Source of the DNA: Ulva prolifera
Taxonomy: Eukaryota > Chlorophyta > Ulvophyceae > Ulvales > Ulvaceae
Direction: 5' to 3'
Assembly: GCA_023078555.1 (NCBI GenBank)
Contig: CM041196.1
Span: forward strand, 5,405,658 to 5,469,657
Length of the DNA: 64,000 bases
Positions within the stretch are counted from its first letter, which is position 1. Every line of letters begins with the position of its first letter. Both the position numbers and the translations under genes were made by a program. The notes below the pieces were generated by a model that worked only from the letters and a program-made list of their open reading frames with translations, did not search any database and had not been told where the DNA came from. Shown here piece by piece: positions 18,416-48,703 of this stretch.

Positions 18416-19207
18416 CTACATCGGCACGTTGCCGTTGTCAAACGTGCAGAAGTTGTTGCGGTCACGCACGATGTTGGGCATGCTGCACGGCACAGCCCCT
18501 GCACAGCACCCCATCGCCCGTGAAGCCCTGACAGCGATCAAGCGGCTGCGGCAACCACGCAGATCGCCGCCAATGTGGTAGCACAGGCCGGCCGCAAAAA
18601 CGCAGCCCATCAGCACGCAGCGCAGCAGACGCAGCACGTGTTATTTGGTTCAGCATGCAGCACAGCATGTGTCACAGCATGCACAGCATGATGCACAGCA
18701 TGTGCAGCATGGGTCGCACCGGTGCAGGCGGGCCCGCCATCAAAGCCGCACTGGATGCAGTCGCCGTCGAAGCACTGAGCAACGGTGGTGTCATCGCACA
18801 TGCCGGCGTTGAGGTCGTTCTCGGGGATCATGCAGCACGCCGTGCCGAGCTGGCCGCAGGGGTCGGCGTCCGGTAGGAAGACGATCTCGGTGGGGGGCGT
18901 GCAGATGAAGTTCACGGCCATGAGGTCGCCCTCGCACTCCTCGTCGCCTGCACATGATCATGAAACTCACGCACAACATTTTGCTCCCACGTGCCTGAGA
19001 AGGGGGGTTTTGTCGGAGGCACGCAGGCAGGCCGGCGTTGCCCGACAGCGATGCACGGCTGGCATAAAGGGCACGTGGTGCAGGTCAGATGCATGCGTAC
19101 TGCACTCGTATTGCATGCATAGTGCACTCGTAGTGAACACTGCATCCCGCTGCAGCAACAGGAAACGCCCCCCCCCCCAATCGCTGAACCCCGAGAGAGT
19201 TTCAGGG

Positions 19208-19244
<37 letters not shown>

Positions 19245-22200
19245 GGGAGAGCGCACCCATGCAGATGCGATTGCCGCGGGTACCACAGCGCTCACACCGG
19301 CCATCGTCGCAGATGAGAGATGTCATGTTGCACGTGCCGCCGTTCGGGTCGGTGGCGGGCAGATCGCAGCACGCCTGGTTGAGTTCGCCGCAGTCCGGGC
19401 CCACCTGAGGTGGCTGTGGGGGCTCCACTTGTGGGGGCTGCTCAGGTTGCTCCGGCTGTGGGGGCTCCACTTGCGGAGGCTGCGCGGGCTGTCCGGGCTG
19501 TGGGGGCTCCACTTGTGGTGGCTGCTCAGGCTGCTCGGGTTGTGGTGGCTCCACTGCTGGCGGAGATGGCGGGGGGGTTGGGGGTGGCACCACAGGGGGT
19601 GGTGCTGCGGGTGGTGTTGGGGGTGGCACCACAGGGGGTGGTGCTGCGGGTGGTGTTGGGGGTGGCACCACAGGGGGTGGTGCTGCGGGTGGTGTTGGGG
19701 GTGGCACTACAGGGGGTGGTGCTGCGGGTGGTGTTGGGGGTGGCACTACAGGGGGTGGTGCTGCGGGTGGTGCTGGGGGTGGCACCACAGGGGGTGGTGC
19801 TGCGGGTGGTGTTGGGGGTGGCACTACAGGGGGTGGTGCTGCGGGTGGTGTTGGGGGTGGCACCACAGGGGGTGGTGCTGTGGGTGGCAGAGGTTGCTGG
19901 CAGACGCCGTCCCTCACCACCAAAGAACCTGTGCAGGCCCTGGGACCTGCAGAGCAGCAAAAGCTTCAGCATCACGGTCGCTGACAATTTCGCTGCCACC
20001 CTGGCGGCCATGCATGGCCGTATGGCCTGAGCGGGGCGGTCGCCCTGGTCAGTAACCGCCGATGCAGGCGCCATGAACGTCGTGACCGTCTCCCCAAAAC
20101 ATCCCCCCACGGGAAGCGCCACACTCCTGCAGCGTGGCGGGGGTACATGCATGGCGCGCTGCAGCTGCACAGTACGTGTTTGTCCTGTTTGATGGACTGT
20201 TTTGGTTTGGGAGCCTACCGTGGCCGTGGGGCCTCCGCTCACACCACCGCTCTTTGCAGGCTTTGAGCAAGTCGCCATACGATTCCGCGGTGCCGACACT
20301 TCAAACGAAACAGTGCTGTACAGGCCGCTTGCGTGTTTGTTGTGAACAGATTGGCGGGAACCTGACCATGCTCAAGAGAGAACCACAGGAGTGTGACCAC
20401 GTCATGCATGCGCTCTGCTTGTGATGATGTGCTGAGTCAGCACACCTCTGCTGCTCGACCACAACCCTGGGTCATTGCGCCACAGGTCCATGCAAGCCCA
20501 CACGTGTGTTGCAACAGTATGGCATGGTATGCAGCCACAGGCGACGGGTCCAATAGACATACAGTCACGGTTGCTGAAGTGCAGCTGGGGAGGGGGGGCC
20601 AGGGGGTCTGTACCTGCGCAGGGTCGGCCGCCGCTGAGGCCGCAGCGTTCGCACGTGAAGCCGACGCACGCAAACCTGGTCGGGTCATCGCACTCGCCGC
20701 TGTCTGGTAGCCCTGGGGAGAAGTTGCAGCACGGCGCATCTGCCACGCCGCACACGGCAGGCGGCGGCGTGGGGGGGGGTGCCGGTGGGGGGGTTGGGGG
20801 CGGCAGAGGTTGCCGGCACACGCCCCCTCGGACCACCAGGGTGCCTGTGCATGGCGTTGGCCCTGCAAGCAGCGGGATATCAGCGTTGCACGCTCTGATG
20901 GCAGCTGGCTATATATCGTACTAAATTAAATGCATTGACATGTAACGTGTTCCGCTGGGTTTTCTAGGTACTCAGCTAGGTATAGTTTATCATGGCTCTC
21001 TGGGCTGACTGAGCCAACAAAGATTACAGGTTTTAAACCTAGACCCCATGTAGCGCAGGCTAATCTGATTATTTAGTACGGTATAAAAGGTACACCCTGC
21101 TGCCAGTAGGCCGCTGCCAGTGGGCCTGCAACTCGGAACACAGGTCTCGCAAACGAGTCTTGGCGGCTCCACAGCTCAGCTGCAGCCGAGGTGTGTGCAA
21201 GCATGCGCCAGCGTTGTGCGAGCCTGCGTTCAGAATGCATGAGCAGCTGTTGCGTGTCAGACTGGGCAGGGCGTCTCCCCATGAAACAGGGGGGGGCACA
21301 CACCTTCGCAGGGCGGCCGGCCACGCAGGCCGCAGCGCTCGCACGTTGTGCCGACGCACACAAAGCTCGTCGGGTCATCACAGTCACCGCTGCCTGGCTG
21401 GCCTGGTGAGAGGTCGCAGCACTCTTCACCGCCACCGCCACACACGACAGGAGGAGGAGCCGGAGGAGGCACCGGGGGCGGGACCGGGGGCGGCACCGGG
21501 GGGGGAGTTGGGGGCGGCAGAGGTTGCCGGCACACGCCCGCGCGGACCACCAGGGACCCTGTGCATGGCGTCGGCCCTGCAAGCGGCAGAACCCTGAGCG
21601 CCCCGAGCTCAGATGGCAGCTCGCGTTGAAGAGGGCGCCCTGCTCAGGCTGGCAGAAGGATTGCTACCCGGAGCACACGGTCTAACCAAAGTTACTCTAC
21701 TTTACTTCAGCACCGGACCTTGGCGGCCCCACCGCTCAGTTGTCGCCATGCAAGGTGTGTGCCAGCCAGCCAGCATTGGCGTGCTGGCAAACACACCAAT
21801 GCTGGCGTGTTACGGCAACAGCAGAGCCGATGCTGGAGGGGGAACGTCAACGCTGCTATCACCACGACGGCGCTTGCTCCAGAGCCAATTGAACACACAG
21901 CAGCACTGCACGAGTCACAAACCAGGTGTAGCTGGTGCTTGTTGCATCGGTCAGGGCCACTCCTGCGCTCAAGTGTTTCCACGTACGACCACACCACAGC
22001 TGCAAGGTTTAAACCAGCAGCAGCATGTGAGAGCCACCGCCTCCGTTCCTCCTGGTGCAGCCTGAGCATGTGTGGCTGGCAGAGGGGTGCCAAAGGGCCA
22101 TGAGTGACCTTGTACGAGAGCAGCAGAGGCTTGCACGGCGTGGCTTGTACGGGCGGCAGCGCAAGATTCTGCTGTTGAGACCAGATCATTGAGCACCATT

Positions 22201-23346
22201 TCTGGCATACATCTGAAGTAGGGGAGGCACACCTTCGCAGGGGGCCCGGCCACGCAGGCCGCAGCGCTCACATGTCGTGCCGACGCACACAAAACTGGTC
22301 GGGTCGTCACAGTCGCCGCTGCCTGGTTGGCCTGGGGAGAGGTCGCAGCACTCTTCGCCGCCACCTCCACACACAATAGGAGGAGGTGCAGGGGGAGGCA
22401 CCGGGGGAGGCACTGGAGGCGGCACTGGAGGCGGCACGGGGGGCGGCACGGGGGGTGGGACCGGAGGCGGCACCGGTGGCGGCACTGGAGGCGGCACCGG
22501 AGGCGGCACTGGGGGTGGCACGGGCGGTGGGACTGGAGGCGGCACCGGTGGAGGCACTGGAGGCGGCACCGGAGGCGGCACCGGAGGCGGTACTGGGGGT
22601 GGCACGGGCGGTGGGACCGGTGGAGGCACCGGAGGCGGCACTGGGGGAGGCACCGGAGGCGGCACCGGGGGAGGCACAGCCACACAAACAGTGCCTGTGC
22701 TGTCAGGCACGAATCCCTCCGCGCAGCCACCTGCACGCCACAACGCACTGTAGTGGTATGGCCTTGGTCCGCTGCCGGCGGCTCCGGGGCTTCCACGGCT
22801 GTTCTGCCGGCACCTCGACGCATCCATGCATGCACCCTCAAACCGCCAGGATGAGGGCAGGATGAGGGCTGAGTGATCGTGCCAACACAGTGATCGTGCC
22901 AACACAGACAGCGGTCAACAGATGGACACAGTGCAGCATGCAGACATCGACCGCTGCGCCGAGCGCCTGTTATGTATAATCGCCCTGCCTCAAAGCCCAG
23001 TTGCATGGCTGGGAGTCAGTTGAGGTAGAGGATCAGCACAGGACGACGCACGGTCAAGGCGTGCAATGTCAGAGTGGAGCGAACCGGAGCAGACGGGCAG
23101 GTCGAGGGTACCACACGGCACACAGAGACCATCCGAGCAGACGTTGGCGGCGCCGTGGCAGAAGTTGTCTGCGCAGCAAGCGCCCGCCTCGGCGCCGCAG
23201 AGGCCGCCGACGGTCAGCGAAGACATCGACATGGCCGTGAGGGTGTCAGTGCCCGCTTTGGCGCCTGCGGCATGCGCGGTCGGGCCGACGGCCGCTGCCG
23301 CCAGCAGCGCCGACACGGCTCTCATCAGCATCTGCATGCGTGCCAT
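18416..23346 (-). CDS. Secreted modular cysteine-rich protein with proline-rich linkers (gene C, six cores)
   Basis: Seven exons join in phase 1 throughout: 23346-23085, 22730-22233, 21576-21304, 20862-20614, 19946-19257, 18947-18720 and 18498-18416. Together they give 760 codons plus stop with no remainder. Exon 1 encodes a signal peptide and a first core (CGAEAGACC..CHGAANVC..C..C..C). Exons 2-6 each start with a two-cysteine tail (such as GPTPCTGSLVVRAGVC), pass through a linker, and end in a core with spacing about C-x6-CC-x10-C-x7-C-x4-C-x2-C-x7-C. Exon 2 has a long VPPP-repeat linker and exon 5 about seven 45-bp repeats of VVPPPTPPAAPPP type. Exon 7 supplies the last tail (NNFCTFDNGNVPM). 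Proline blocks suggest hydroxyproline-rich wall or matrix rods between disulfide knots. No known domain is recognised and the function is unknown. Two sister genes lie at 31.2 and 43.7 kb. Confidence 0.85.
19209..19243. repeat. 35-base G homopolymer (C tract in the sense of gene C)
   Basis: It lies about 14 bases into the intron that follows the fifth exon of gene C. The donor is GTGCGC followed by TCTCCCTCCC and then the pure C tract on the sense strand. Confidence 0.97.
19560..19890. repeat. 45-bp coding minisatellite (proline-rich linker)
   Basis: About seven copies of a 45-bp unit on the minus strand encode VVPPPTPPAAPPP-type repeats within exon 5 of gene C. Copies differ by single bases (ACCACAG/ACTACAG, GTTGGGG/GCTGGGG). 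The frame is preserved because 45 is divisible by three. Confidence 0.93.
22395..22676. repeat. 12-bp coding microsatellite-like array (VPPP linker)
   Basis: Over 280 bases of a 12-bp unit encode VPPP more than 20 times in exon 2 of gene C. Codons for Pro and Val vary, so the array is not freshly expanded but is held at the amino-acid level. Confidence 0.93.
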
Positions 23347-26300
23347 CCTCGCCGGGACGTCGATTTACAGGGTGCAGGCGTCAGTGACTGCAGATGTTTA
23401 AACAATTGGCCCCAGTGACCTACATGGCTGCTCGCAGTGTTCCGATTGGAACACGGAAGTACAGCATCCCAAAGCAGTGCACTGACCCACACACGTGAAC
23501 GTTGTGCTCCTCCCCGGGCTAGGAGGACCAGATGCCAGGCTGCAGCTGTGGAGCACGCCAAGTTACAGAAGAGCAAACGGGTGCAGGCAGATACAGCAGA
23601 CGTATTGCTGCCGTGCAGCTGTACACGTGGCGCTGCAAGTGCGGTGTGCGGCATGCTGACGGCGCCACAGCCTGCGCTGCTCGAAGGCGACTTCTGAGGT
23701 GGCATGGGGCGTATGGCATAGTGCGAACACAGGACTCAGAACATGCCCGATTCTCGTGGGTCCGATAAAACGCGTCTGCTGCAACCGCACCGTCGAACTT
23801 GCACGTGGCGTTACTAAAGCATGAGCTCATATGCGCGCAGCGTCGACACGGATTTCAGGCCAGAGTTCGCAGGCAGACCGTGCGTTATCGCAGCCCAAGT
23901 CACAGCGCGCCGTGCAGCTGAGCCTCCATGCACGGTGATAGCGTGATGAAACGATGGTGCACCATCATGGTGCAGCGCACAACCACGTCTGCGGTCGAAG
24001 ACGCTCAACTCGGCCTCGGAGGCGATGAGATGCGAACCGTCATGGTGATGCTCACGCTGCGGCCTTGTGGAGCCCAGGCGACATGGGTGGAGCTGCCTGT
24101 CAAGCAGAAGATTGCGCAGTGGCGCGGAATCTCAATTCCTCGTTGGTCATGCTGTGCTACGCATGTGCCAGAAGTTCAGCAATGCACACTGACAGGACGC
24201 CGCGATGGACATACGCGGCGAACCAAAGATGGCGCAGAAGGGGCATGCCCTGACACGCACAGAGCGGCAGGTAAGATTTTCTGCGAGCCATCTACTTACG
24301 GCTGCTTCACAGTAGACGCGCTGCTGGCGGGACGACCGGGGAGCTGTGCATCGCGGCCGCGATGCATCGCGGTGTACAGAGCGCGAGCGTCACATGTGTA
24401 TGCAACTACCGACGTGACGAATCACTGCTACCGACGTGACGAACCTCTGCTACGCGCGCGATCGCGCACCCACACACCGCGCGCATCAGCAGATCAATCG
24501 GCGCTCCGACGTCCTTCCATCTGTTTAAATGCGGAAGCTGCTGTTGCATGTGAGTGCTGAGACCACAGGCGCGGCGGGCTGAACGGAATACGCTGGACGT
24601 CAGGGATACGTGTCTCAGTGCTGACTGCATAGGCCGGCCCAGCGTCATGACGCGCTGAAGTGCAGGGCACCGTTACAGAGTACCGAATCAAACGGATAGC
24701 GACCACGCCACGATGCGGCGTGCCCTGTGATGCTACCTCCACGAACGGCGCACCATGCCATCACATCGCCGCAAGTGTGCTGCATTTGAGCTGCCCGGAC
24801 TCTCCTTGCGCGTCTTGCGAGACCACTGGCAAGCTCATCACTGGATCCAGTCACAAGCAGCTGCAGCTGCGGCAGGTGAAGGAGACACACCTTCACGCAC
24901 GCTGGAGGGTCAGTGAACAACTGAGGTGTGCAACAGAGCTTCGGGCCGTGTCCACGGGGAGTCTGGTTTTAAATGGCGCTCTGCACGCACCCGGCTTGCC
25001 GTGCCATGGCAGTCGGGGCAGACCCCATGCATTCACCAGTCAATGCATTGCCCGTTCACGGCCAGGGCCCCATGGCGAGCCTCCCGCTCACTGCATCCCG
25101 GACCAAAATACGGCCATGCGGATGCTAGCGCGAGTGTGTACGATTATCGTCTGCACGCGCCTGATCACAGACGCCCGATCGCAGACGCGAACGTGATGAC
25201 AGCTCCCATTTCGCGCAATTTGAACACCGTGAGCGATTCTATAGTGCCTGCGCGGCTGCAGTGACTTCAGTGCTACACTGGATTCCAAATCATTTCTGTG
25301 TCCTATCTCCGACGGGATTGCTGGAGGTTGATTGCGTAGCACGGCGATTGGCCATGCTAATAGAATAGTGCTAGTACACCTTCAGCGTCGGTCATCGCTT
25401 GCTGCACGCTCGAGGTGATCCCTGCATGCAAGGCCATAGTGACGACTGTAGTCGCTGAAGAAAACTATTGATTGCATCGGCAGAATCACTCGAAAACTTG
25501 CCATGCGTAGAAGATGCATCGCATGGACAGGCTCACTATAAAAACTCGCCATGCGCGCGCAGGATGACCCTCTGCATCCTATCCTGCGACCCACCAATCG
25601 GCATATTCTCTTTTGTAACATGTACCAATCGACAATATGACTGCAGTATGAATTGTAGTAAGCTTTTGTAATTGCTGTTCCCTTCGTTCCACACACATCT
25701 TCCAGTGGTCTCCACCACATGTTCCCGAATTTTGTGCTCAGTCGCTGGGCTGTTCGTACTGCTGACAGACTGTCGTGCATGAATTCTTTCCATTATTACA
25801 GTTGATCTCTACAATCCTGTGCTTTGAAAGCTCGTGACCTGCGAATGGGCCTGAGAAACAAGGGTACACACTCGTGGCTGCTTCATGAACATGTGTGTGT
25901 CGGTAGATCACTTGTCAATTGCGAACCATGGCAAAGCTTGCTGACTTGATGCAGAAAATGGTGTCATCGGACCTTTCAAGTCAACACGCATGCCATGATA
26001 GATGTGGAAGCATTGTTTTCAGGTTTGATGAAAACCCGATGGGGACCAAGGGCCAATCGCAGCATGCAGCATGCAGCACACGGGCCATGTCCCTGGTAAG
26101 ACCTCGTATAGCACTTGCGCATATGAATCTCTTGTATTCCTGTTTGACGCTACGAATACAAAGCATACTACGTCTGCAGTGGTCTGTGCCTACTTGCAGC
26201 TGCGCCATGCTGCACACGATGAACAGGTGCCTGAGAGCTTGACGATCAGGTTATATATATCAACAGACAGACAGGAGTGCAAATGCGTTCATCTTGTGCA

Positions 26301-29300
26301 TGTTACAAGATACACCTTGTAAGGTGATAGGCGATGGCTACGAGATGTGGCTACAATATTGATGATGCAATGCCATATGGTATCATGTGGAGAAACAGAG
26401 CATGCCATAACGCATTTATCATAGCAATGTGGCCCTCAAGGCATATGTTTGAGAACACATGTATTGCAAGGTGACCCCACGGACATGTGTATGTGCATGG
26501 TGTCACCATGAGTGTGTAACCCAGCAGGCACTGAAACCAAGAAGAGACCAGTGCAGGCAAACCTGCAGCTGATTGCAGAATGTTAGGTCGCGAAATTCCT
26601 ATAGGGCACAACCAGTGAAGGTTCACAAGCTGTAAACTTGTGACTGTGCAAGGTGAAGTGGCTTCAGAGTGTGTGGGCTAGTACAGAGCATGCTTCCACA
26701 CGAATGGATGCCTCTGCGGGGGTACGTAGCATCGATGTTCGAACTATTGCTTGAATCGCCTGGTCAAGGCTGCTTTCCGGGTGGGCTGCTCACTACTGCA
26801 TGAGTCAAACCAGTTAACTTGCAATCCCAGCTTGACGAACAGAACTTCATGCGTGGCCGCAAGAGCTGGCATGAACATGGAAGGTACTGCATCATGTGAC
26901 TGAATCAATGATTCAGCCTCTTGTTTGATAGTCGGAGGGCCATAGAACAGCTGCCCCGCGCCTGGGCCACCGCTGAAGCGCACGACCCCAGCGCTCATCA
27001 GGGCATGCGGCTTCATTATGTTACTGGCCAGTAATCCTATTTAATCATCTGATATGAATTCGCATGCGCTCGGTAAACTTTCTTCTTTGGACAGCATTCG
27101 GCGGTTCGTGCTCTGAAGATGGAACATTGTATCGGTGATCGAAGTGCACAAGCAGTTGGATGGCCACGGGGGCATTCGCTAGATGGAACGTTTTGTTTAA
27201 ATTGCCTCGAGCGCCCCGGCCTCTGGGCTTGTTCGGCCATTATCTCGAGATACGTTCGGTGAGCATAGTACTGGCCAGAGCTAGATGCATGTCAATGCGT
27301 CACAAAGACATGGCATGGAAGGCGATGTGCGTGTGCCATGCTGTCCGATCACATGGCTTCTGTGCTCCGTGGAGCTGCCTCTGTATTTGCTCGGTTCTGG
27401 CCATTGCTTCTGAGAGTTTTGCATGGCTTGAGCTGTCCAGCATGACGTGCTGCCAGTGGGACACGACGTCGACACATCGCGTATCATGCAGCAAAGTACC
27501 CATAACACAATGCACACTTCCCAAAGCAGCACTGTTTGCTTATTGGACTTGCTCCACCGACCTCCCTGAGGGCTTCTCTGGAGGAGGAGGGCTAGGCAAT
27601 ATGAATTGTCCTGAACGCCTTAGGCATGTGTAACAATAACATGAGTAGTGTTGGCCCTGCAAGTGTTGCAGCAACTGCTGAATTGATTGGCCCTTTAGCA
27701 GCAGCATAACGATGGCATACAAATTCAGTTGCAGGCTGTATGAGTTCCAGTTGCCATCTTCACCACGGCGGCATTTTTTAGCATTGGTGAAGGAGACAGA
27801 CGCTTGCATGCGCAGATGACAGCAGTGGCATGATAGCAGCACCCTTCCATGATGTGCCTTGATGTGTTCCATGATATAATGTGCACATATGTGCCCAATG
27901 ATGTTCGTGGAGTTGATATTCTGGTGAGTTTGTATGCTCTTGCCCCACACCCCATGATTGTAAGCTGTAGCATGGGTACCGGCTGCTGCCTGTGAGCCAC
28001 ATGTAATTTCGAACCTGGCAGTCGTTTTGACGAAGAACTGAGCCACATGGACCAATGATCATGCAACTGAGGAGCAGACTTTGTCTAGTGGCACTGCCAG
28101 CTGTGTTGTTTGGAGTGCTGACGCCAACACAGCCACCAGACAATGCCAAAATCACAGAAACCGGGGCCTATCCTTGCATTGGTGCCTCGGGTGTCACTAC
28201 TTGATCAGGATTTTTCTTCAAGCGAGCACCATACTGGAGCACGTGGAGTTGTGCAGTGTGCTACATGGAGCATCTCCAGCATGACGGATACGATTCCATA
28301 TGACAGCCTTTCTTTAGTGCTGTGTTCGTAGGCCACTTCAGGGCAACGCTGTTGCAATCAGGGGCCAATTGCCACTGCAGCTCCACCGGTGGTTTGGAAC
28401 GTAAAGGCAATTACAAGACCCCGACTACTCCGATGTCAGACCAACTTCCGTGCAACACACTCCATAATAATCGTGGAATCAAAATCACGTTGGTGATAAT
28501 CTATCCCGGTCCCACGGTGAGCGACCAGAGTGTGCCTTCTTCCTGCAGCTGCTATCATGATCAGACCTTTTCTCGAGCTCGAGGGGAAGCGCTTGAACGC
28601 AACTCAATGCACTGCCACTGATTACAGCACAGCGGAATGTTTTTCCAAAGTGATGCCATCTGCCACAGAGAGCACGGCAGGCTTTGCCGGGCGTCAACGT
28701 GCTGCCAGTAGTATCCGCTGTGGCAATGACGCAGTCGCCATGGCGCAGAGCACCTCGGCCGTACCCCTGCGAATCTGTAATGACGATCCACTCAAACAGT
28801 CAGTATTGGCAAAGCAATGCTCGCAGCTTATGATGTCGCTCACTGGGGCCTCGCGCACTCGACCAAATATTAATGTTGCTGGCTGCGCCTGAACATAGAA
28901 GTCACATAGTATGCCAATCCGGTTGCAGACAACGACGCGTTTGACAACGACCAAGTCATTGGAAATCGCCTGGCAACACAATTGGGCATCAGGTGGTGGC
29001 GATCACGGCGATCAGACAGTGTTTTCACGGCTGAACTTGTATGCTCTTTGCGATTTGTCGATGTTTGTGCCTCGGTGCGTCCCGACGTTCACACCGCGAC
29101 GGGTCGTTCACACCTGGCTGCCGATTGTGTGAATTACACGAGCGCGGGTCATTGCATGGCAGGCCAACGGAATTGCAGAGCCCTGCCATTTGAACATCTT
29201 GAAGGTGCACCTAGCACATAGACCAAAAACCATGAACCCACCAGGTCACATCAGATGCCCCCGTAGCTGCAGCTAGCTGTCGTCGTCTTCCGTAGCAGCA

Positions 29301-31211: not shown

Positions 31212-32821
31212 TCAGGTCAGATACCCGTTGTCATATGTGCAGAAGCCCTTGTGGATGGCCAGCTTGCCAGTGCAGGGCTTGGAACCTGCATCCCACACCT
31301 CACCCTGAGGCCAGACATGTGTGTATGTGTCATCCCCAATTCCATGTCCCCACACGCTGTGCAGCTGTTGCTATGTCATTGCACCAGGAAGGCAGGCGGC
31401 TGCTCAGTCATGCTGAAGCCACACAGCAGTGCTGTAGGAACCACATGCACGATCCATTCCAAGCACCGACGATGTATGCACCCCCGACTCGACCATGACA
31501 TGCTGTCTTTATTCAAGTGGCCAATGCGGTTAACCTGGGCCCGCAGCGCGGCTGAGCCCAGGGGCCATCAGGTCTGGGCCCGTCCGTTCTGCTCCGGCAA
31601 CACACGGCATGCCACAGCACTCCCCACACGGCCGGCCTGCATGACATTGCGAGACGGACGGTGCGAGAAATAAGAGCTCCACGCACCAGCACAGATCGGC
31701 ATGCCGTCAGTGCCGCAGCGCTTGCACTGACCCTCCCAGCACGTGAGCTTGGTGTCGTCGCGGCAGGTGCCGCCGTTGGGGTCGTTGTCGGGGATGTCGC
31801 AGCACGGCCACTTCAGGTCGCCGCAGGGCAGCTCTGCCGGTTTGTCGTCTACCTTGGGGGCCTTGGGGGCGGGCGGGGGGGTGGGCTTGGGTGCCTTCAC
31901 GGTGCCGCGGGGGGCCTTGGGGTTGCGCATGCGTGTGCGGCGGCTGCTGCGGGGCGCCTTCACCTTGCCCGGCCTCCTGCTGGGGGGCTTTGAGGGCTTG
32001 GGGGCGGGTTTAGGCGTCGGCTCGGGGGCCGCAGGCGTGACGCTGTTGTCAAAGGTGCAGAACGTGCCGACCTGGATGATGTTCTTTCCAGTGCATGGCG
32101 TCGGGCCTGCACAAGCAGTCACGCCAAATAGACTCGGCTGTTGACAGGAACTTGGCACTCTGAGTGGGCGAGGTCATGCGGCGTGGTGTCTGATGACTTG
32201 GAACAGGCTGCTCAGTCAAACTACTGTCCTGATCTAATTGAATGCAGGAGAGCCGTCTGTAGCGGCCCTTGCAAGGAGCATGGATCAGCAGTCAGGCGGA
32301 CCCAGCGGCAATGGGTTCAGGGCCGGCATGACAGGACGAGCTGTGATGACTGACTGGAAGCGAGACCGTCCTGTGTGGCCACCCACGCTGCATGCTGTTG
32401 CACACGTCCGCAGCGTCTGCTCAACATGCATCAACCCGCAACACTTTGCCACGCTGGCAACAGGCATGCATGGTGCTCCGCATAGCTCAGGTGCAGCCGC
32501 ACCGGTCAGCCACAGCAGCGGCTGCATTGGCAACCGGGCGTCAAATGGCCAGGTATCAAAATAGATGAAGTAAAAAAAAAAAGTGGGGCGTGGCGCACCG
32601 GCGCAGACAGGCATGCCGTCGGTGCCGCAGCGCTTGCAGAAGCCCTCCCAGCAGGCCATGAGGGTGTCGTCACGGCAGGTGCCGCCGTTGGGGTCGTTGT
32701 CGGGGATGTCACAGCACTCCCAGTTGAGGTCGCCACAGGACGTGAAGGCGGCCGTGGCGCCACGCGCCGCCGCGAGAGCGAGGGCGACAGTGTACACGAA
32801 GGAGACCATCTGCGTGGGCAT
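31212..32821 (-). CDS. Secreted modular cysteine-rich protein (gene B, two cores)
   Basis: Three exons, 32821-32599, 32106-31687 and 31285-31212, join in phase 1 to 238 codons plus stop with no remainder. Introns start GTGCG and end TGCAG. Exon 1 has a signal peptide (residues about 1-26, hydrophobic VALALAAARGATAAF) and core 1 with CGDLNWECCDIPDNDPNGGT. Exon 2 has a tail (GPTPCTGKNI..FCTFDN), a basic, proline-rich linker of about 60 residues (Lys/Arg/Ser/Pro, unlike the acidic or neutral linkers of the sister genes) and core 2. Exon 3 gives the closing tail (SKPCTGKLAIHKGFCTYDN) and stop. This is the smallest member and shows the minimal plan: signal, core, tail-linker-core, tail. Function unknown. 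It is presumably extracellular and disulfide-rich. Confidence 0.87.
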
Positions 32822-35705: not shown

Positions 35706-35731
35706 CATATGCATGGATATCCATGCATATG
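35706..35731. repeat. Perfect 26-bp palindrome
   Basis: CATATGCATGGAT followed directly by its reverse complement, with no spacer. Confidence 0.95.
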
Positions 35732-37099
35732 TTTTACGAGGCCTGCACATCACTGATCACGATTCAATCAAGTTGCGAACGCCCCGGGACGAATCGGCAT
35801 CAATACCGATGGGCCATGTGCATCGGGGCCGCCATGGCCATGCCGGCCCGGGCATTCAACGTGAATGCAACTGCGCGCACGTACACATGTACGTGCACAC
35901 CCCCGCCGCGCGCCCAGGCCGGCCGGCGCGAGGCGGCATGCATGCATGGCCATGAACGAAGAGATTCTTGTGTCGTGTTTGTTTGAGCCTGTTCACGTTC
36001 CTGCCCACCACGTGCACATCAGCGCCCTTGTTGTTCCTGCTGTGGGCCTGCTGATGGTTCAGCGGTGCTACGTGCCTCCTCGTCGTTGTCCTGAACGGCA
36101 TGTATACATATGTACACAGTTGTAATGCATGTGGCCATTGTACACACGAGGTTGCTTGCAAAGGGGTAGCGTCGAGGCCCCTAGGGGCAGCACGGCCAGC
36201 ATGGGAAACTTTGGTATGGTAGAGATTGGTGAGAGGTTGCAGGCGCTGAGAAGACAGGGCTGTAGTTGACAGGGCATTCTTGCAGCATGAGACAACTGTC
36301 CAGCATTCAGTGGAACTGCAAGCAGACACAACAACCCACAAGGAGAGTAGCAGGTAGCAGGTTGTCTCTCTGTTCTATGGTGCACCTGCAGGTGGTGCGC
36401 TTGCACAAGGAATATTATCGGGTATAGTATCTATCTTGGGAGATACAGGTAGGTAGATCTTTTCCACAAGCCTAGGCCTGTGTGAAAAAGATCTTGTTCA
36501 CACTCTAGAGCAGCGCAGTTGGGTACAGAACAACTGGCCAGCCCACACTTACCTGTTGCAACAGTGAACTGCATGCAAGACAAGGTAGCTGTGACCGTGA
36601 CAACGAAGCAGTTGCATTGGCAGACATATGCAAACAGGTGGAGGTACCTGCACCATGGTGCTGTGCTGGTGCCCTCACAATGCCTTGCAAGATTTCTTAT
36701 GTGTGGCAAGAAATCATATGAGGGACAACATCTAGTCGTCCGTCCCAGACTGCGGGGACTGATTCAATGCATTGATGATTCTACATATCTCGGAGTTATC
36801 ACAGACACGGCCCATGGGCACCTGGGCACCATGCATCTTGTAATAGCCAATGTTCGCCTCTTGATCTGAGGTACATGGAAGAGCATAAGGCCGGGCGCAT
36901 GCTGAGGACTGAGGACTCGAATCACATCACATAGAGCTCAACTGTACAGCATGTGCACTATCTTGCGCCACTGCAGTGAATTTCAAGTTGTCCCTCTGCG
37001 TGCCTTCCAGAGGAGCAGGCCATGGTGCACAGTTGAAGGCATCAGTGCAGGTAGCACCCTTGCATGATCATGATCATGTGATTCACACACTGCAGGCCG

Positions 37100-37255
37100 G
37101 TTATTTTTTATTTTTTTTTGGGCGTGGTGGGTGTCGCGTGCGTGGGTGTCTGTGTTTTTGTGGTGGGTGTCGCGTGCGTGGGTGTCTGTGTTTTTGCTTC
37201 GTTTGTTTGCTTCTTTCGCGGTGCTGCCCGCCTTGCTGCCTTTGTCCTTGTAACA
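37100..37255 (-). repeat. Dispersed repeat family R2, copy 2, with 36-bp duplication
   Basis: On the minus strand it begins GTTACAAGGACAAAGGCAGC, then AAGGCGGGCAGCACCGCG, as in the 8.0-kb copy. A 36-bp unit (containing GTGTCGCGTGCGTGGGTGTC on the plus strand) is duplicated, and the element ends in an A-rich tract near 37105-37120 on its sense strand. An A-rich end is typical of a retroposed sequence. Confidence 0.6.
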
Positions 37256-39330: not shown

Positions 39331-40145
39331 TACGTGTTGCAAGGACAAAGCCTGCGAGGCAGGCAACAGGGGCACCTCACACCCACGCAACGCCAACACC
39401 AACACGCAACACAGACCAACACAGACCAACACGCCCATGCAGCCGCACACGTCAGCACCCTGCCTAGCCATGCACACACCGGTGGGCTGTGGTGGGGTGC
39501 CGTGTGCGGGTGTTTGTTGTGACTTCAAGTTGGCCCTGAGTTCGGCCGGATTCGAGGTGGCTGTTGCTCTCCTGGCGAGCATGCTCTGCGTTGTTCGTGC
39601 GCTGCCTCGATGTCCAGGCGGTACTACCTGCCCCTCTGGATTTGTCAGTGTAATACACACAGCGGTGGGTGTCTGGCATGCTGTGGTTGGGCGCCGTGTT
39701 CGGGTTCGATGTGGGAGTGCATCTCCCGCCATGCATGCATTGGTGCGTTGGCATGCCCGTTCGTTGCCCTGGCAGTGCACTCCGGCTTTGTAAACAAGAG
39801 TAAGTAATTACTCTTGTGCCATACACACAAAGGCCCCCGCACCCCTGCCCACAATCACACCCCCGGGGGTGTGATTGGGTGGGGGGTGGGGGTGGGGGTG
39901 GGGGTGGGCCCACCCCCACCCCCACCCCCACTCGCACCCCGCCCCACAGCCCGGCCCCAGAGCCCGCGGGGGCAGCACAGGCTGGAAAGCCCAACACCCC
40001 GAGACACCCACAACAACCCCGGGGAGGCCCCAGAGTCCCCCAGCAAAACCCACCCCGTCTATCAGCAGGCCCCCACCCCCACTCGCACCCCGCCCACACG
40101 TGCGGGTGAGCAGGGTGGTGTGGGGGTGGGGGCCTGCTGATAAAC
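39330..40145 (+). repeat. R2-related C-rich block with three perfect inverted repeats
   Basis: It starts near 39335 with GCAAGGACAAAGCCTGCGAG (R2 head). A palindrome with a four-base centre lies at 39794-39817, then a perfect 26-bp palindrome (39852-39877, CAATCACACCCCC and its complement) and a perfect 44-bp G/C palindrome (39887-39930). A third has 22-bp arms at 40060-40081 and 40121-40142 (TATCAGCAGGCCCCCACCC). A block with ACTCGCACCCCGCCC occurs twice (about 39928 and 40080). No coding content. Confidence 0.8.
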
Positions 40146-43100
40146 ACCCGGACCCCGAATCGCGAATCCCAGCCCTCCTTTCCCAAACCCCCCCTCCCGC
40201 TTCCACCCTCCCAAGGCGGGCTACACGCGTCAATGCAATGCAGCGGAGCTGATGATGTGAGATTCCTGAAGTGCTGCCCGCCTCACCTGTGCCTGTCATT
40301 GTCACGCTGACGGCTCTCGACCTCATTTGGGGCTGTTGTAGTTGCCGCCGTTCTGACCACTGAGGCTGGCTATATGCAGCCCTTGTGGTGTCAGCTTGGT
40401 CTGGCCTGATTACATGCTTAACATCTGATGAACAACACGTCATTGCGGCCTTCAGGGTGAGCCACTGCTTGGAGCCTCAATGCTCACAAACGCGAGCTTG
40501 AGTATCACAACTACCACAACATACATTCCAGAGTGATTAGGCCCATGCAGGGCAGGACAACAACAGACCTGTGTTGACACTGATCCGACTCAACAGGATT
40601 TTTCCAACACACACTCTGCACGTACGAAATGAAAGACCCACGACCCACGAGCGGGCTCCTGTTTGGCAATGGCTCAGGTAGGGTAGTGCATTGCTTCTGT
40701 TTTGGGCACTTGTCTCAACTGCCAGCAGCCATGCTTCTGCCCAAAAAGAACCGCCTGATATGTCATGATAGCATGTCTGAGGCCCCATGAGGGCCTTGAT
40801 CAGCATCTGTGCACCTGGAAGCTGCACATTTGTCCATCAGCAACTGGATGTGGCCACAGCAGCTGCAGTGCACTGCTGTTAGAGCTGCTGCACTCACCCA
40901 CCACAGTAGGGTCACAGACAAGCTTCTCCTAGCTGGATAATCATGAGGTTGGTGTGAACAAGCCAATCAAATGGTGAGACTTGGTTCTCCAGATCAGATC
41001 AGGGCAGAGCTGCTCACGACTGTGCTGCTCATAATTGTTCACTGAATGCCAGTGCAGCTGAGCAGCAAAGGGGAAAACTCGATTTGCGGCAGTGCAGCTG
41101 CACAGCAAAGGGGAAAACTCGATTTGCGGCATGCAGGGCGCCTGAATTAAAAATATTAATATTGACGCACGCAGGGAGAGGATGTGGAGGATGTAGAGGA
41201 TGTGGAGGATGTAGAGGTTGTGGGGGATGTAGAGTGGATGTAGAGTGAATGCTGCAGTGTGTGGTTCTGTGCTGGCATCTGCCTATCCGAGCCCGAGTTG
41301 TTGATAAAACTCAATATGCTGAGCCATTGCTATGCCGAAGGCTTGTGGCTATGGGTGGAGATTCAGAGGTGCATCATGTATCATGGAGGACATGGGGAGT
41401 GCTGCAAACATCAAGGGTGCATGGCCTTGCTTGGTTTCAGAAAGGAACCAGGGCTGATCTATTCGGGATACAAGAGCATGGTCTTTCCACAGCAGTGCGC
41501 TGTCAAGATTGATGGGCTCCACAGTGACATAGAAGATACACACTGTGTAGAGCAGATATTCCACTTCAGATAGCGAGCGCTGTTTTTCCATACATGGCCG
41601 AGGTGTGCGGATCTTTGGCTATAGCAGTGTGTTCATCAAGCACACATGCATCCTCTGTAAGTGTGACCAGGAAGGCAGGCCACATTATACCAATTGCAAG
41701 AGAACGTTCAGGCGCGTAGTGTGGCTGGCAGCAGGCATGGGGCTGATGCAGCACAGCAAAACCCCAGAAGCGACTGGCGGGCACGAAATTTCCATCGCCT
41801 CCTACAGATGCAGAGACATCTGCCTGCTACTCCAGGCCTTTGCAGTACAGATTCGAAAACACAACATACTTTTGGTGGCTGACGCAGCCGATGCAGGCAG
41901 GTCACAGGTCAACGTGCACTGCAGCTGTGTTGCATTGCCTGGGCCAGTGATTCAAGACTAACTGCGAGTCCTGCACCAAAAGCAAGGCCACGATGCCACC
42001 ATACTTACTTCGGCTGCAAGGCTTCAAGTGGAGAGTTCCTGGCGCACAGACGACCGCTCTCGGCTGTGATCACAGCCGTTGATGGCGCTAAGGGCGCATG
42101 TAAGGGCGCATGTAAGGGCGCATGCTGTCACCACGCTGCAATCTGCAGAGGATGTGCCTATCGCGTTGACCGAGCTGCGCTCGCTGTTGCAGTGATTCTG
42201 TCGCTGGGCCTCAACACGCCTGCGGCATTGACGGTGTACATGCTTTGCTGTTCTGGGTGCACATCGTCGCAGAAGGTACTTTACGCTGCTCCGTTGCGCA
42301 GTAGTTCTCTCGCGTGTGTACAACGCAGCTTCTCTGCACCGAGATAAGTTCCTGACATTCGCCCTGCGCGCGTGCGCTCGCTTTGAGCACATCGATGCGC
42401 TCGAACAAAGGTCGCTCGGGCCAAGGTCGACATGTGGATAAAGCGGTACCGTTGGAAAATACACACGGAAGCTGGCGCAGCTCAGCATGAGACACCAGAA
42501 CCTCGCATTCAGTCGTTATTTACACGCGCACCTACATGGCCCTGAACGCTTGCCTGCCGGCAGCTCCTCTGCATCGCTGTCGCAGGCCCTCGGCCGGTGC
42601 CTAGGGGCCTAGGAGCTCAGGACGGTGCACACGCCCGCCGAATATTTGATTTGAGATCCATTTGGTAAAGTACTTTGAAGAACAAGAATGGCTACTAAGT
42701 GCGTCTCAGGTCGGGCCTGCCACCATTGGAGGCCACTAAGCGACAAGGTCGCGCCCTGGGCCACTCTACCCCGGGCCCGCGGCGCCCCGTGTATGAGGTA
42801 GCGCACTCAATACCAGCTCTGCCCCCTGTGCCCGACCGATATTATTAGCCGCATTCTTCTCCCACTTGCCAGGCTCATGATGCGATGCCAGAACGTGCAA
42901 GTCAAACCCATTGCTGCCTGATCAGCTGACCATATGCTGACCAAATATATATATATAAAAAGCAGCTGTGGGTCAACCAGCACATGGCAAGCAGACAGCA
43001 GCGCTAGCTCCTTTGAATTGACCCACAAGCCAGCAGCATACGCAGCCAGAGTTTATCCACCCATATCGAGCATGCATGGGCGCCCTCCGCCTGCACTCAT

Positions 43101-43699
43101 GTGCCTCCTGCGAGCTATGCGAGCTATGCATCAATGCTGCGCCATGCCACAATGCATGGCATGCGGGCCTCTTGTGGCCCAGAGACAAGACCCCCGCAAC
43201 TGGGTGACCTTGCCGTCAGGCATCCACAGCCATTGCACGTCCTCCATGCCACGTCACACCTGCCGCACAGAGTACATCAGCCACCTCCCTGCACAGCCAT
43301 CACACGGCGTGGGGCGCTCGGCGGTTCAGTTCAACTCAAGTTGTGTCCACGTGCATTCCAACAGGCTGCATTCCAACAGGCAACACCCACGCATGTGCCA
43401 TAGCTTGCCTCGCCTGCGACCGGAGCACCTCTACACCACAGCATAGCCCTTGACCGTATGTGGCAATCCAGTGGTATAGCGGCCATATCACTGGATGCCA
43501 CACCGTATCACGGATCAGCTTGAAGGCAGTGACCAGTCACTGACAACGGTTCATGGTTCATTGGTGTCAGGCATGCAGGTGGACATGCAGGTGCTGCAGG
43601 TCCAGGCCGGGCGCCATGCTGCACATCTGAGGCATGCCACGTACGGCACGCCGAGGAGCACACCTGTGCTCATCGCGCCAGCATGGCAGCATCGGGTAG
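40146..43699. other. 3.6-kb spacer with small repeats
   Basis: It contains a 40-bp tandem duplication at 41051-41130, a GGATGTAGA/GGATGTGGA minisatellite at 41180-41240, a 13-bp triplet repeat (AAGGGCGCATGT) near 42090-42122 and a hairpin at 43460-43501. A plus-strand ORF at 41605-41961 has a CxC..H..C patch but no recognised family. Confidence 0.4.
41051..41130. repeat. 40-bp tandem duplication
   Basis: Two adjacent copies with period 40 share the run CAGCAAAGGGGAAAACTCG and differ at one or two bases near GCTGAGCAG/GCTGCACAG. Confidence 0.93.
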
Positions 43700-46600
43700 C
43701 TAGTACTTGCCATTGTCGAAGGTGCAGAAGTCATTGCTGACGATGAGCTTGCCTGTGCAGGGCTTCGGGCCTGCACACCACCGAGTTTCAGTCGAAGCAG
43801 CTGTTTGCTTTGGCACTCGCTGGGCGCCCGGCCGGCCAACGGCATGCACAAAGCAGCCATACATGTGGCAGCACAGGCCACCCGCAGCACTTCCACTTTC
43901 GTGAGCCTGCCTACCGCCGGCGGCGGCGGCGCGCAGAAACTCTCCTTTGTGGAGACCATCAGCAGATCACGTCTGAATTCTGCTGCGATGTATAATCGTT
44001 ATGTTCTATTCCATACTGCGAGTCATGCATGGCATGCAACACATCAGGGTTGCTCGGCATGCCCGTGAAATCTAGCGTGGCAGCAGGAGGCGTCGCACCA
44101 GCACAGATCGGCATGCCATCAGTGCCGCAGCGCTTGCATTGGCCCTCCCAGCACGTGAGCTTGGTGTCATCACGGCAGGTGCCGCCGTTGGGGTCGTTGT
44201 CGGGGATGTCGCAGCACTCCCACGCCAGGTCGCCGCAGCGGAGCGCCATCGCACGCGCAGGCGAGGGCATCTTCTTGCTCTTCGTGGCGGTCGGCGGCGT
44301 GGGAGTCTTTGCTGGCACTGGGGGCACAGGCGTGGGCGCAGGGCCGTTGTCAAACGTGCAGAAGTTGTCCTTCACCTTGAGGGACTTCTCACATGGCTTG
44401 GGGCCTGAACAGCGATTCCATGTCAACGCCTCATTTGCGCTAGCTAAGATGTTGTAATTCAGCCGCAGACAGCAAGTAATTCTGTGAGCGGTGCCGCCCT
44501 GCTGCCGGTGAAGAAACTGAGTGATGTCTAGTGGCAAAGCCAAGGGATTACGCCGCAGAGGTCGGCTGAAGACCGCACCCAGCTGCTCGGTGCACCCTTC
44601 TGTGCGACGGCAGATCAGCACACCGCAACAGGCATGCAGGGACGCAGGAACAGTGATACACCAAGCATAGCGATGCATCGGAGCCCCAGGCAGTGGACAC
44701 TCTGTTCAAAGTGTGACTCGCGGCCGCCATGCATTGCCTCAGGTGCAGCATGGTCATTTGCTCTGCACACCATGCAGATGCCCACACGGAGCAGTGGCCA
44801 CGCAGTCGTCTGTTGCAGAGTCAGCGGAAGCTGAGGGCCGCACCAGCACAGATTGGCATGCCGTCGGTGCCGCAGCGCTTGCAGACGCCCTCCCAGCAGG
44901 CCATGAGGGTGTCGTCACGGCAGGTGCCGCCGTTGGGGTCGTTGTCGGGGATGTCACAGCACTCCCACTTCAGGTCGCCGCAGCGGAGGGGCCCGTCGTC
45001 GGTGATCTTGGCCGCCTTGGGGGCGGGTTCAGGAGCAGGCTTCGGGGCCGGCTCGGGGGCCTTGGCCATGGGTGGGGGGGCTGGGGGCTGGGAGTTGTCG
45101 AAGGTGCAGAAGTTGTTCTTGTCCACGATCAGCTTGCCAGTGCACGGCTTGTCGCCTGCAGGCGTGGCGACAGTACATATGCTTGCTGCGCGGACAAAGT
45201 TAACATGCGCTTGCAGCAACTACTACATTCATGATTGCAATGTGCACGCTGTCGCCAAGCAAAGTGAGCGCCTTCGAGGGGCATTTCGCATGCGCATGAG
45301 CAGCATGCATTGTGCGACAGCCGGATGGCTGGAGCGCCGGAGATGCCAGAGGTGAGTGTGAGTTTGGTCGGCGGACTGTCGCCAACCCGCCTCGCATTCT
45401 GCTGCATGCATGTGAGTAAGCTGCTGGTTAGGAGGGAAATGCATGCGCCAACCCACTAGTCACAACGCCTCTCACCCGTGGCTATTCTTGCTGCAGGAAA
45501 TTGGACCACAGTCTGATCAAAGGCAGCTTCGGTGTGGTTCTACGTGCAGCAAACGCCGCCAGCGCATCATGCGCTGGCGGGGCGAACAGCTCTGCCTTCG
45601 CCATGTGCAACGTTTCACACAAGCTCAATTGGCAGAATGGAGAATCTGAGCTATGTGCCAATCCACGTAGCGTGACACACATCAAGTCAAGGGATCAGCG
45701 TTTCTCGCTGTTGCAAACAGATCTGAGGCTGCGGCAATTGCTAGCCAGGCGGGTGCAGCCTACCTGCACTCTCAACATTCACATGTACTAGCTTGTTGCC
45801 CAGCTGGAAACTCAAATGAGTTCTGATCTACTGGTTTGACGTTTTGGGTTGACAAGGAACGCACCGGCGCAGGCGGGCATGCCGTCGGTGCCGCAGCGCT
45901 TGCAGACACCTTCCCAGCAGGCCATGAGGGTGTCGTCGCGGCAGGTGCCGCCGTTGGGGTCGTTGTCGGGGATGTCACAGCACTCCCACTTCAGGTCGCC
46001 GCAGCGGAGGGGCCCGTCGTCGGTGATCTTGGCCGCCTTGGGGGCGGGTTCAGGAGCAGGCTTCGGGGCCGGCTCGGGGGCCTTGGCCATGGGTGGGGGG
46101 GCTGGGGGCTGGGAGTTGTCGAAGGTGCAGAAGTTGTTCTTGTCCACGATCAGCTTGCCCGTGCACGGCTTGTCACCTGCAAACAGCATGGCTGCCAAGC
46201 GTTGATAGGACGCAGTGCGTTCATGCGAGCCCTAGGAGCTCATGCCACGGAAGGGGCGACAGAATCCACATATGCACATAGCTGTCAGTGCGCGTAGGGC
46301 CTGGTGCACTGACACTGTCAGTCTGACAGCCGCAGGTGGAGGAATGTCGGCACATAGGGCCTGGTGCACTGACACTGTCAGTCTGACAGCCGCAGGTGGA
46401 GGAATGTCGCACGGTGCGACAAGGCCGGTTCTCGCATAACAGACCAGGTCATTCCCCGATACATCTGTGCACCTGGTCTTCCACAACATGATCGGAAGCA
46501 CTGTGTGTGTTCGATGCTACAGGATGAAGCGGTGCATCACAACAGCCATTCGTTTGAGAGTGGATCCTCGACACCTTGGCCAGAGACACGCAGCAGCATC

Positions 46601-48703
46601 GGCAGCACGCTCATGTCACCGGCCTGGGCACATGAAAGACAAAGGGGGAACTGACATCATTTCCAGGCGGCAGCCAAGTGAGCACTAAACCCGCTGCTGA
46701 CCAGTCGAATGTGAGCTTCACGGTGCATCAGCGCCCAAGCACACACTTTCGAGCCATCGCCGGTCATGCACTGCAAGCCAGCACTCACCATGTGCGTCCT
46801 GGCAGCAGTGCAGGTGGAGGGGGGCCGCACCGGCGCAGGCGGGCATGCCGTCGGTGCCGCAGCGCTTGCAGACGCCCTCCCAGCACGCCATGAGGGTGTC
46901 GTCACGGCAGGTGCCGCCGTTGGGGTCGTTGTCGGGGATGTCGCAGCACTCCCACTTCAGGTCGCCGCAGCGGAGCGGCCCGTCGTCGGTGGTCTTGGCC
47001 GCCGTGGGGGCGGGTTCCGGTGCGGGCTTGGGGGCCGGCTCAGGGGCCTTGGGTGGGGGGGCTGGGGGCTGGGAGTTGTCGAAGGTGCAGAAGTTGTTCT
47101 TGTCAATGATCAGCTTGCCAGTGCACGGCTTGTCGCCTGCAGGCTCAACAGCAGCTCAAGCACAGCTAGCACAGGTCAGTGGGCTGCATGCACAGCCGCG
47201 CCTGCGCATGTTAGACGCCGTAAAGCTTCTAATGCAGCGCAACACCATGTCCAGCTGAAGCATGTGGCAGCAGTCGGCTCTGAGGCCCCTGTCAGTCCCA
47301 TGTAGCCGGTGTAAATGCAGATTCAACTGAGCACAATTGTTGCATCATGCAGCACCCATACCAATCAGACCCCTTGCACCACAGCAGAATTATTCGTGGA
47401 CAGAAGCGCCCAGGCCCAGGTTCCTCGCGCTGGGAGTCTCAGCCTTCACAGCTGACACTGCAAACCCAGTTCGATGCTGCGGGCGATGGACCCAGCCGCA
47501 GCGACAGTGCGTGCACCACACAGGAGAATGTGAAGGCTCCCGACCCAAAACATAGCACTATTCGGGTAACCATTTGTGCATTCAATGCCGCACAGAAGTC
47601 ATTGAACGCGGAGATAGACCACAATGCCAGACGCCTCCGCAGCCTGGCCTATGCAGCAACACAAGCGGCGGCAAAGTCCCAGAGGTGGGCCGCACCGGCG
47701 CAGGCGGGCATGCCGTCGGTGCCGCAGCGCTTGCAGACGCCCTCCCAGCACGCCATGAGGGTGTCGTCACGGCAGGTGCCGCCGTTGGGGTCGTTGTCGG
47801 GGATGTCGCAGCACTCCCACGCCAGGTCGCCGCAGCGGAGCGTCTCCGCCGCTAGAGGCGGGTCCTCGACCACGGGGTCGAGTGGCGGGGCGGTGTCGGG
47901 CACGCAGAAGTCGTCCACCTCGACGAGGCCCTCTTGGCAATGGGGCTCCGCTACACCCCGCAGAGGGTTAGTGCTGGCCTGCTCACGGTGAAGAGGGGCA
48001 TGCATGCGACAGTCAGGGCACTCCCTGACAGGCCGTCCTAGCTGATTCATGCCGAATGCCGGAGAATTCGGCGGTCCAGCTGATGTCTGTGATGAATCGA
48101 CCTTGCACATTTGAGAGGTCTCACGGTCAATGCGATCCGCTGCCAGTGTACTGTAGTAAAGTAAAGTAAATCTAAATTTACAGAGCCGTATCCTATTGGA
48201 CATTGAAAACTCCGAGTTAACGGGACCACATATGCCGTAGTCAGCGAGAGGTCTCCACACAACCCGTAGCCGAGATCCCATGGCCGTTCATGTGTACAAT
48301 GAATTGACGGGAGATGCCCTGCTGTGAGGGGCGCCTAGCGTGCCATTTAGCAACCTGGCCTGCTCACGCATGAACGCTCGCTTCCGCCCACAAACGTTGG
48401 TCACATCTTGCAAAGCCACTGTTGTTTGTTTATTGAAAGCCGTCGGCCAATCAGAGCTAGCGAGCAACCCTTCAGCATGCAGAGGGTGGGACGGGACGGG
48501 GAGGGCGCACCAGCGCAGGCGGGCGTGCCGTCCTTGCCGCAGGGCATGCACAGGCCCTCCCAGCACGCGAGGGTGCCGCTGCAGTAGCCGGTGCCGAAGC
48601 CGGAGTACTCACAGCACTCTCCGTTCTCATCGCCGCAGGCCAGCACCACGGCGGGCGCAGCGGCCAGTGCCACAGCCAAGGTAGCACGAAACAACATCTG
48701 CAT
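43700..48703 (-). CDS. Secreted modular cysteine-rich protein (gene A, six cores)
   Basis: Seven exons in phase 1: 48703-48511, 47950-47696, 47136-46831, 46176-45865, 45155-44844, 44404-44099 and 43770-43700. They sum to 1755 nt, 584 codons plus TAG. Exon 1 has a signal peptide (residues about 1-22, LAVALAAAPAVVLA) and core 1. Exons 2-6 each run tail (GDKPCTGKLIVDKNNFC), Pro/Ala/Lys linker (PAPPPMAKAPEPAPKPAPE), then core (CGDLKWECCDIPDNDPNGGT..C..CWEGVCKRC..C). Exon 7 ends KPCTGKLIVSNDFC..DNGKY. Core spacing is C-x6-CC-x11-C-x7-C-x4-C-x2-C-x7-C. Internal exons are 255, 306, 312, 312 and 306 nt. Exons 4 and 5 are almost identical in nucleotide sequence, yet the introns beside them are unrelated. 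No known domain is recognised. Ten cysteines per module imply five disulfides and extracellular residence. Confidence 0.9.
46296..46415. repeat. 60-bp tandem duplication between gene A and exon 3
   Basis: Two adjacent copies with period 60, each containing GGGCCTGGTGCACTGACACT and GTCAGTCTGACAG, lie within the intron between exons 3 and 4 of gene A. Confidence 0.93.
48154..48237 (-). repeat. Dispersed repeat family R1, copy 2
   Basis: The minus-strand copy shares GCATATGTGGTCCCGTTAAC and TTTACTTTACTTTAC with the copy at 870-950. It lies inside intron 1 of gene A. Confidence 0.8.

What the first reader, a model, noticed from the sequence alone, without database searches (positions are those of the whole stretch)
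18416..48703. Undescribed family of secreted modular cysteine-rich proteins, three genes on one strand
Three genes (A 43700-48703, B 31212-32821, C 18416-23346) encode a signal peptide and 6, 2 or 6 copies of one module. The module is an eight-cysteine core with fixed spacing (C-x6-CC-x10/11-C-x7-C-x4-C-x2-C-x7-C) plus a two-cysteine tail ending FCTFDN. I match it to no known domain family. Linkers differ per gene: Pro/Ala/Glu in A, basic in B, VPPP or VVPPP arrays in C. This looks like an extracellular rod-and-knot protein family, perhaps wall, scale or matrix, that has diversified locally.
Basis: partly seen in the sequence, partly recalled or inferred. Interest (0 to 1): 0.88.

Follow-up and report, generated by a model that had tools for sequence, protein, structure and literature searches.

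The report
Secreted cysteine-bead repeat proteins, probably algal
Three neighbouring genes of an intron-rich organism, probably a green alga, appear to encode secreted proteins that string copies of a ten-cysteine bead on proline-rich rods; the protein libraries searched here do not know the bead, but bead-and-rod wall proteins are a familiar kind of thing in algae.

Summary
Spliced models of three minus-strand genes give 584, 238 and 760 aa with signal-peptide-like starts and 6, 2 and 6 modules. All 14 modules carry exactly 10 cysteines; 140 of 140 cysteines lie in modules. All 14 introns are GT-AG, phase 1 and between Cys8 and Cys9, so the repeating exon is tail-linker-core. The core pattern occurs 14 times in the window and once in total in 20 Markov windows. 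Corrections: the CC-to-C gap is 11 in 12 of 14 modules (9 and 4 in the others), and FCTFDN ends 7 of 14. Nothing credible turned up in Pfam, NCBIfam, PDB sequences, or viral, phage, plasmid and prokaryote collections. No eukaryotic genome collection was available, so novelty among algae is untested. AlphaFold models of the core are too poor to assign a fold (pLDDT 62, 54). Most likely these are secreted wall or matrix proteins, disulfide beads on proline-rich rods, working like pherophorins but with a different bead. By-product: near-identical exons of gene A are separated by essentially unrelated introns, and the end of exon A5 looks mosaic, which suggests exon-confined gene conversion.

The parts
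43700..48703 (-). Gene A, 7 exons (48703-48511, 47950-47696, 47136-46831, 46176-45865, 45155-44844, 44404-44099, 43770-43700), 584 aa, 6 modules
   Evidence: spliced open frame; modules
48638..48703 (-). Gene A signal-peptide-like N-terminus; the first module follows directly
   Evidence: 19-residue hydropathy 2.02; cleavage site judged by eye
31212..32821 (-). Gene B, 3 exons (32821-32599, 32106-31687, 31285-31212), 238 aa, 2 modules, one linker of 73 aa with net charge +15
18416..23346 (-). Gene C, 7 exons (23346-23085, 22730-22233, 21576-21304, 20862-20614, 19946-19257, 18947-18720, 18498-18416), 760 aa, 6 modules, linkers of 101, 26, 18, 166 and 10 aa
22397..22677 (-). VPPP array of gene C, 12-bp unit, about 23 copies
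   Evidence: translation
19569..19887 (-). Second Pro-rich array of gene C (VVPPP type), 39-bp unit, about 8 copies
   Evidence: translation
44844..44982 (-). Core of module A5 to its exon end: like A2-A4 for most of its length, but at the last 5 variable sites (about the last 12 nt) 4 match A6 and B2 instead

Best explanation
Genes A, B and C are paralogues encoding secreted structural proteins of the cell surface. Each module is a small domain held by five disulfides inside the module (C1 to C10). The beads are spaced by Pro-rich rods: long and probably polyproline II, hydroxylated and glycosylated in C, shorter and charged in A and B. The beads would bind partners or glycans, and the rods set distance and charge. 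The repeating exon is tail-linker-core, cut by a phase-1 intron between Cys8 and Cys9, so duplicating one exon always adds a whole module plus a linker in frame. In gene A the exons have been made alike by gene conversion that stops near the exon ends because the introns are unrelated. Shown: open frames, splice-site pattern, module, spacing, cysteine count, exon and intron divergence. Inferred: splicing, secretion, disulfides, hydroxylation, wall or matrix role, gene conversion.
For: Spliced open frames with all 14 introns GT-AG, phase 1 and at one module position. Ten cysteines per module in 14 of 14 and none elsewhere in the three proteins. Hydrophobic N-terminus and no comparable segment later. 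Coding constraint: cores C2 and C3 differ at 13 nt, 12 of them third positions, 1 aa change. The long linkers of C are 74% and 55% Pro. Exons A4/A5 are 98.7% identical over 299 nt, while blastn at E 1e-3 found no similarity between introns within A, within B, or between A and B. End of exon A5 mosaic.
Against: No RNA or protein evidence. Structure predictions are poor (pLDDT 61.6 and 54.4) and cover the core only. The wall role rests on architecture; the same make-up would fit a secreted inhibitor, lectin or defence protein. Linkers of A and B are only 26-37% Pro. In the looser comparison of 7 introns (A2-A6, B1, B2), 5 of 21 pairs scored above all 30 shuffles, four clearly (A4-A6, A4-B1, A5-B1, A6-B1) and B1-B2 just, with scores up to 47 against 584 for exons A4/A5. 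The mosaic rests on 5 variable sites, one of which fits neither type.
Confidence: 0.6

Rival explanations
1. The module is a carbohydrate-binding knottin related to CBM1 (its C-terminal part C6-C10), so the proteins are lectin-like wall cross-linkers.
For: The only PDB profile match up to E 10 is a CBM1 (7yhf, E 0.95, 25 residues); the spacing C-x10-C-x5-C-x9/10-C occurs 8 times in the three proteins; module C4 scores 3.4 bits with a CBM1 HMM, reached by 1 of 200 shuffles.
Against: The PDB E-value is chance level. With cysteines held fixed, 14 of 60 (C5 to end), 21 of 60 (full module) and 23 of 100 (C7 to end) shuffles reach the profile score; with full shuffling 9 of 100. For the other 13 of 14 modules the CBM1 HMM gives negative bits, reached by 36 to 187 of 200 shuffles. 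No Pfam CBM_1 hit in 11 of the 14 modules scanned, of which A3 and A4 are identical.
Confidence: 0.1
2. Secreted protease inhibitor, antimicrobial or signalling proteins of small disulfide-rich beads, multivalent by repetition.
For: Disulfide-rich beads in tandem are typical of such proteins (general knowledge); net +15 linker of B.
Against: Long Pro-rich rods in C are typical of wall proteins (general knowledge); no credible family hit, though one module row matched Pfam Toxin_9 at E 7.4, chance level.
Confidence: 0.2
3. The module is a described eukaryotic domain missing from Pfam, for example that of the Volvox VCRPs.
For: VCRPs are named as small cysteine-rich extracellular proteins of Volvox in two titles of the reference list of PMC9818292.
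Against: None obtained: no VCRP sequence was available and the paper is not held.
Confidence: 0.12

Closest known systems
Pherophorins of volvocine algae (PF12499, DUF3707)
   Same: Secreted Hyp-rich proteins of wall and matrix (PMC6704257 passage); globular cysteine-bearing domains on Pro-rich rods (recalled).
   Different: No PF12499 hit; the module here is 57-68 aa with 10 cysteines, in up to six copies.
Zygote wall protein with Hyp-rich and lectin-like domains of Chlamydomonas (name ZSP-2 recalled)
   Same: Hyp-rich domains plus lectin-like domains (title in the reference lists of PMC9832785 and PMC6704257).
   Different: Its sequence was not compared; the hevein-type pattern C-x4-CC-x5-C (recalled) is absent here.
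Hybrid proline-rich proteins and nsLTPs (8CM)
   Same: Secreted, Pro-rich part plus eight-cysteine domain.
   Different: 8CM needs C-Xn-C-Xn-CC-Xn-CXC-Xn-C-Xn-C (PMC9832785 passage); no CXC in the three proteins.
Fungal CBM1
   Same: Similar spacing of four cysteines.
   Different: Not above shuffled controls except in module C4.

Membership tests
Pherophorin (PF12499) | Match to the DUF3707 profile | tested here: not met
   hmmscan of gene A up to module 3, whole gene B, three pieces of C, and 11 module rows: no such hit at E up to 10, though HMMER's filters drop most matches above about 0.1
nsLTP / HyPRP | C-Xn-C-Xn-CC-Xn-CXC-Xn-C-Xn-C, n 8-50 | tested here: not met
   no CXC and no 8CM match in the 3 proteins
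Hevein-type chitin binding (CBM18) | C-x4-CC-x5-C (pattern recalled) | tested here: not met
   0 matches in the 3 proteins; no Pfam hit
CBM1 | CBM1 profile similarity beyond cysteine spacing | tested here: not met
   13 of 14 modules within the shuffled range, C4 above it (1 of 200); profile comparisons within the shuffled range
Disintegrin (PF00200) | Pfam profile match | tested here: not met
   no hit at E up to 10, with the same filter caveat; the resemblance in spacing is recalled only
Hydroxyproline-rich glycoproteins | Signal-peptide-like start and long Pro-rich repeats | tested here: met
   gene C: linkers of 101 and 166 aa at 74% and 55% Pro; genes A and B only 26-37%
Hydroxyproline-rich glycoproteins | Hydroxylated, O-glycosylated prolines | not testable with these tools
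   needs mass spectrometry
VCRP | VCRP sequence similarity | not tested
   no VCRP sequence available; paper not held

The most novel reading that the evidence does not exclude
A ten-cysteine extracellular domain not in the family libraries, confined to one algal lineage, encoded so that each domain is split by a phase-1 intron and every exon duplication adds a complete bead and rod; its exons are kept alike by gene conversion while the introns have diverged beyond recognition.
Probability: 0.45. Interest if true: 0.55.

Novelty: new variant of a known kind. Interest (0 to 1): 0.4.

Why it matters
Algal walls and matrices are built from bead-and-rod glycoproteins. A defined ten-cysteine bead with a countable repeat would be a new building block to look for in wall proteomes, and the exon layout is a clean case of how modular matrix proteins grow. 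The exon-only homogeneity would be a good test case for concerted evolution within a gene.

Tried and rejected
Family libraries. Pfam with three single modules; with gene A up to module 3, whole gene B and three pieces of C; with 11 module rows (A2, A4 and C3 were not rows, A4 being identical to A3). NCBIfam with three pieces. Best chance-level hits: zf-CCHC_2 E 0.19, 12 bits against a cut-off of 27; VlpC_Nterm E 0.17; Toxin_9 E 7.4 in 1 of 11 rows. PDB by sequence: none; by profile: one, a CBM1 at E 0.95. PHROGs and PADLOC were not searched.

Relatives. Plasmids: 2 records at E 7 and 10. Phages: 4 records at E 2 to 9. Prokaryote genomes: 25 candidate stretches, 2 passed, both a 17-residue match in Mucilaginibacter MAGs; the stretch read around one of them has no cysteine in 57 residues, and that genome has no match to the module profile at E up to 1. 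Viral contigs: three modules tried, none confirmed. 395 genomes of the phylum of G001: 7 with E 0.004-0.01, against about 4 expected by chance; 5 of the 7 have stops inside.

Folds. Two AlphaFold jobs on the core (54 and 49 residues, 14 rows; pLDDT 61.6 and 54.4). Foldseek on the first: 24 matches up to E 10, best E 2.3; the second was not searched.

Internal duplication: half 1 against half 2 reached by 26 of 100 shuffles with cysteines fixed and 14 of 100 fully shuffled. CBM1: see rival. nsLTP and hevein: patterns absent. Disintegrin: only a recalled resemblance.

Organism. A TGTAA polyadenylation signal, recalled as typical of green algae, was sought in 700 nt after each stop: found once after gene C (188 nt), not after A or B. 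This does not support the green-alga guess.

Literature: ten searches, including the string FCTFDN (0 papers). Passages only were seen of PMC9818292, PMC9832785, PMC6704257 and PMC10837150; the other papers were seen in listings only. The library holds open-licence papers only.

Full report
What is there. The window is intron-rich, about 57% GC, and has no Rfam match. No whole genome is held for it. The 14 introns of the finding start GTGCG in 10 of 14 cases and end TGCAG in 12 of 14, which I recall as the style of chlorophycean green algae. A recalled algal polyadenylation signal, TGTAA, was found after only 1 of the 3 genes. The green-alga assignment is inference; nothing here names the species.

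Gene models. Each begins with a hydrophobic stretch (19-residue hydropathy 2.02, 1.49, 1.48), and the rest of each protein has none as strong (0.62, 0.64, 1.15). No signal-peptide program was available; the cleavage sites are judged by eye.

The module. Fourteen modules of 57-68 aa each hold exactly ten cysteines in the order C-x6-CC-x(4-11)-C-x(5-7)-C-x4-C-x2-C-x7-C-x(3-5)-C-x(10-12)-C. All 140 cysteines of the three proteins lie in modules. The relaxed core pattern occurs 14 times in the window and once in total in 20 second-order Markov windows. A profile scan of six frames finds no further clear module; the best other hits are 13.2 and 12.2 bits.

Exon layout. Each of 14 introns (221-709 nt) lies between Cys8 and Cys9 of a module, in phase 1. 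The repeating exon is therefore tail-linker-core, and the domain itself is cut by the intron. Duplicating an exon adds a whole module and keeps the frame.

Evolution. Cores A2-A5 and B1 form one type, A6 and B2 another: A6-B2 differ at 9 nt, A6 from A2-A5 at 16-23, B1 from A2-A5 at 7-10. Exons A3, A4 and A5 are 93-98.7% identical over nearly their whole length, and cores A2 and A3 have no third-position difference in 45 codons. Yet blastn at E 1e-3 finds no similarity between introns of A, of B, or between A and B (A introns 328-709 nt); the one hit between two introns of the family is Ci2-Ci3, 48 nt. Against that, a looser local alignment of 7 of the 14 introns puts 5 of 21 pairs above all 30 of their shuffles, four clearly and one just, with scores up to 47 against 584 for exons A4/A5. 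At the last 5 variable sites of exon A5, 4 match A6 and B2 rather than A2-A4, and 1 matches neither. A conversion tract that ended inside the exon explains this best; simple recent duplication would have carried the introns along. Conversion is inferred, not shown.

Search for relatives. Pfam, NCBIfam and PDB gave nothing credible; the parts scanned are listed under Tried and rejected. Phage, plasmid, viral and prokaryote collections gave nothing beyond chance. No eukaryotic genome collection was open to me. So 'not in these libraries' is shown, and 'new to science' is not.

Fold. AlphaFold on a 54-residue core stretch with 14 rows gave pLDDT 61.6 and, on the 49-residue core of C1, 54.4; the main common element is a hairpin around C5-x4-C6. 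Foldseek on the first found nothing below E 2.3. A knottin fold is possible and unproven. Internal duplication and a CBM1 relation were tested with shuffles that keep the cysteines and were not supported, with the single exception of module C4 against CBM1 (1 of 200 shuffles as high).

Function. Secreted by sequence, cysteine-rich beads on rods that reach 74% proline in gene C: this is the architecture of wall and matrix proteins in volvocine algae, where Hyp-rich pherophorins and Hyp-rich proteins with lectin-like domains are reported (passages of PMC6704257 and PMC10837150, reference titles in PMC9818292). The family works like these by design and fails the sequence tests for membership that could be run. 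I put the wall or matrix role at about 0.6.

Verdict. It is most likely a lineage's own bead for a known kind of protein, hence 'new variant of a known kind'.

Noticed in passing
43771-47136 (exons A3-A6 and the introns after them): Exons A3-A5 are 93-98.7% identical while the introns of gene A are essentially unrelated; the end of exon A5 looks mosaic. Suggests exon-confined gene conversion.
   Followed up: partly
871-947, 52874-52936 and about 48142-48235 (intron 1 of gene A): A dispersed repeat, 82-90% alike over 65-80 nt, present in intron A1 and at two other places in the window.
   Followed up: no
56000-56647, minus strand: Possible exon of a PhoX-type phosphatase: weak Pfam PhoX match, 15.7 bits, below its cut-off of 24; the coding-like frames at 54107-55387 had no Pfam hit.
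   Followed up: no
992-2692, minus strand: Glycosyl transferase family 2 gene (Glyco_trans_2_3, 30.2 bits against a cut-off of 27 on 2327-2692; 17.6 bits, below cut-off, on 992-2323).
   Followed up: no
12840-13121, minus strand: Pentapeptide repeat protein (Pfam E 3.7e-18).
   Followed up: no
60678-61136, plus strand: Reverse transcriptase fragment (RVT_1, 27.2 bits, just under its cut-off of 29.6), a likely retroelement.
   Followed up: no
3288-3955: Tandem array of a 102-bp unit, 6.5 copies, 98% matches.
   Followed up: no
46295-46409: 60-bp tandem duplication, 1.9 copies with 100% matches, inside intron 3 of gene A.
   Followed up: no
5378-5477: Run of 100 N, probably an assembly gap.
   Followed up: no
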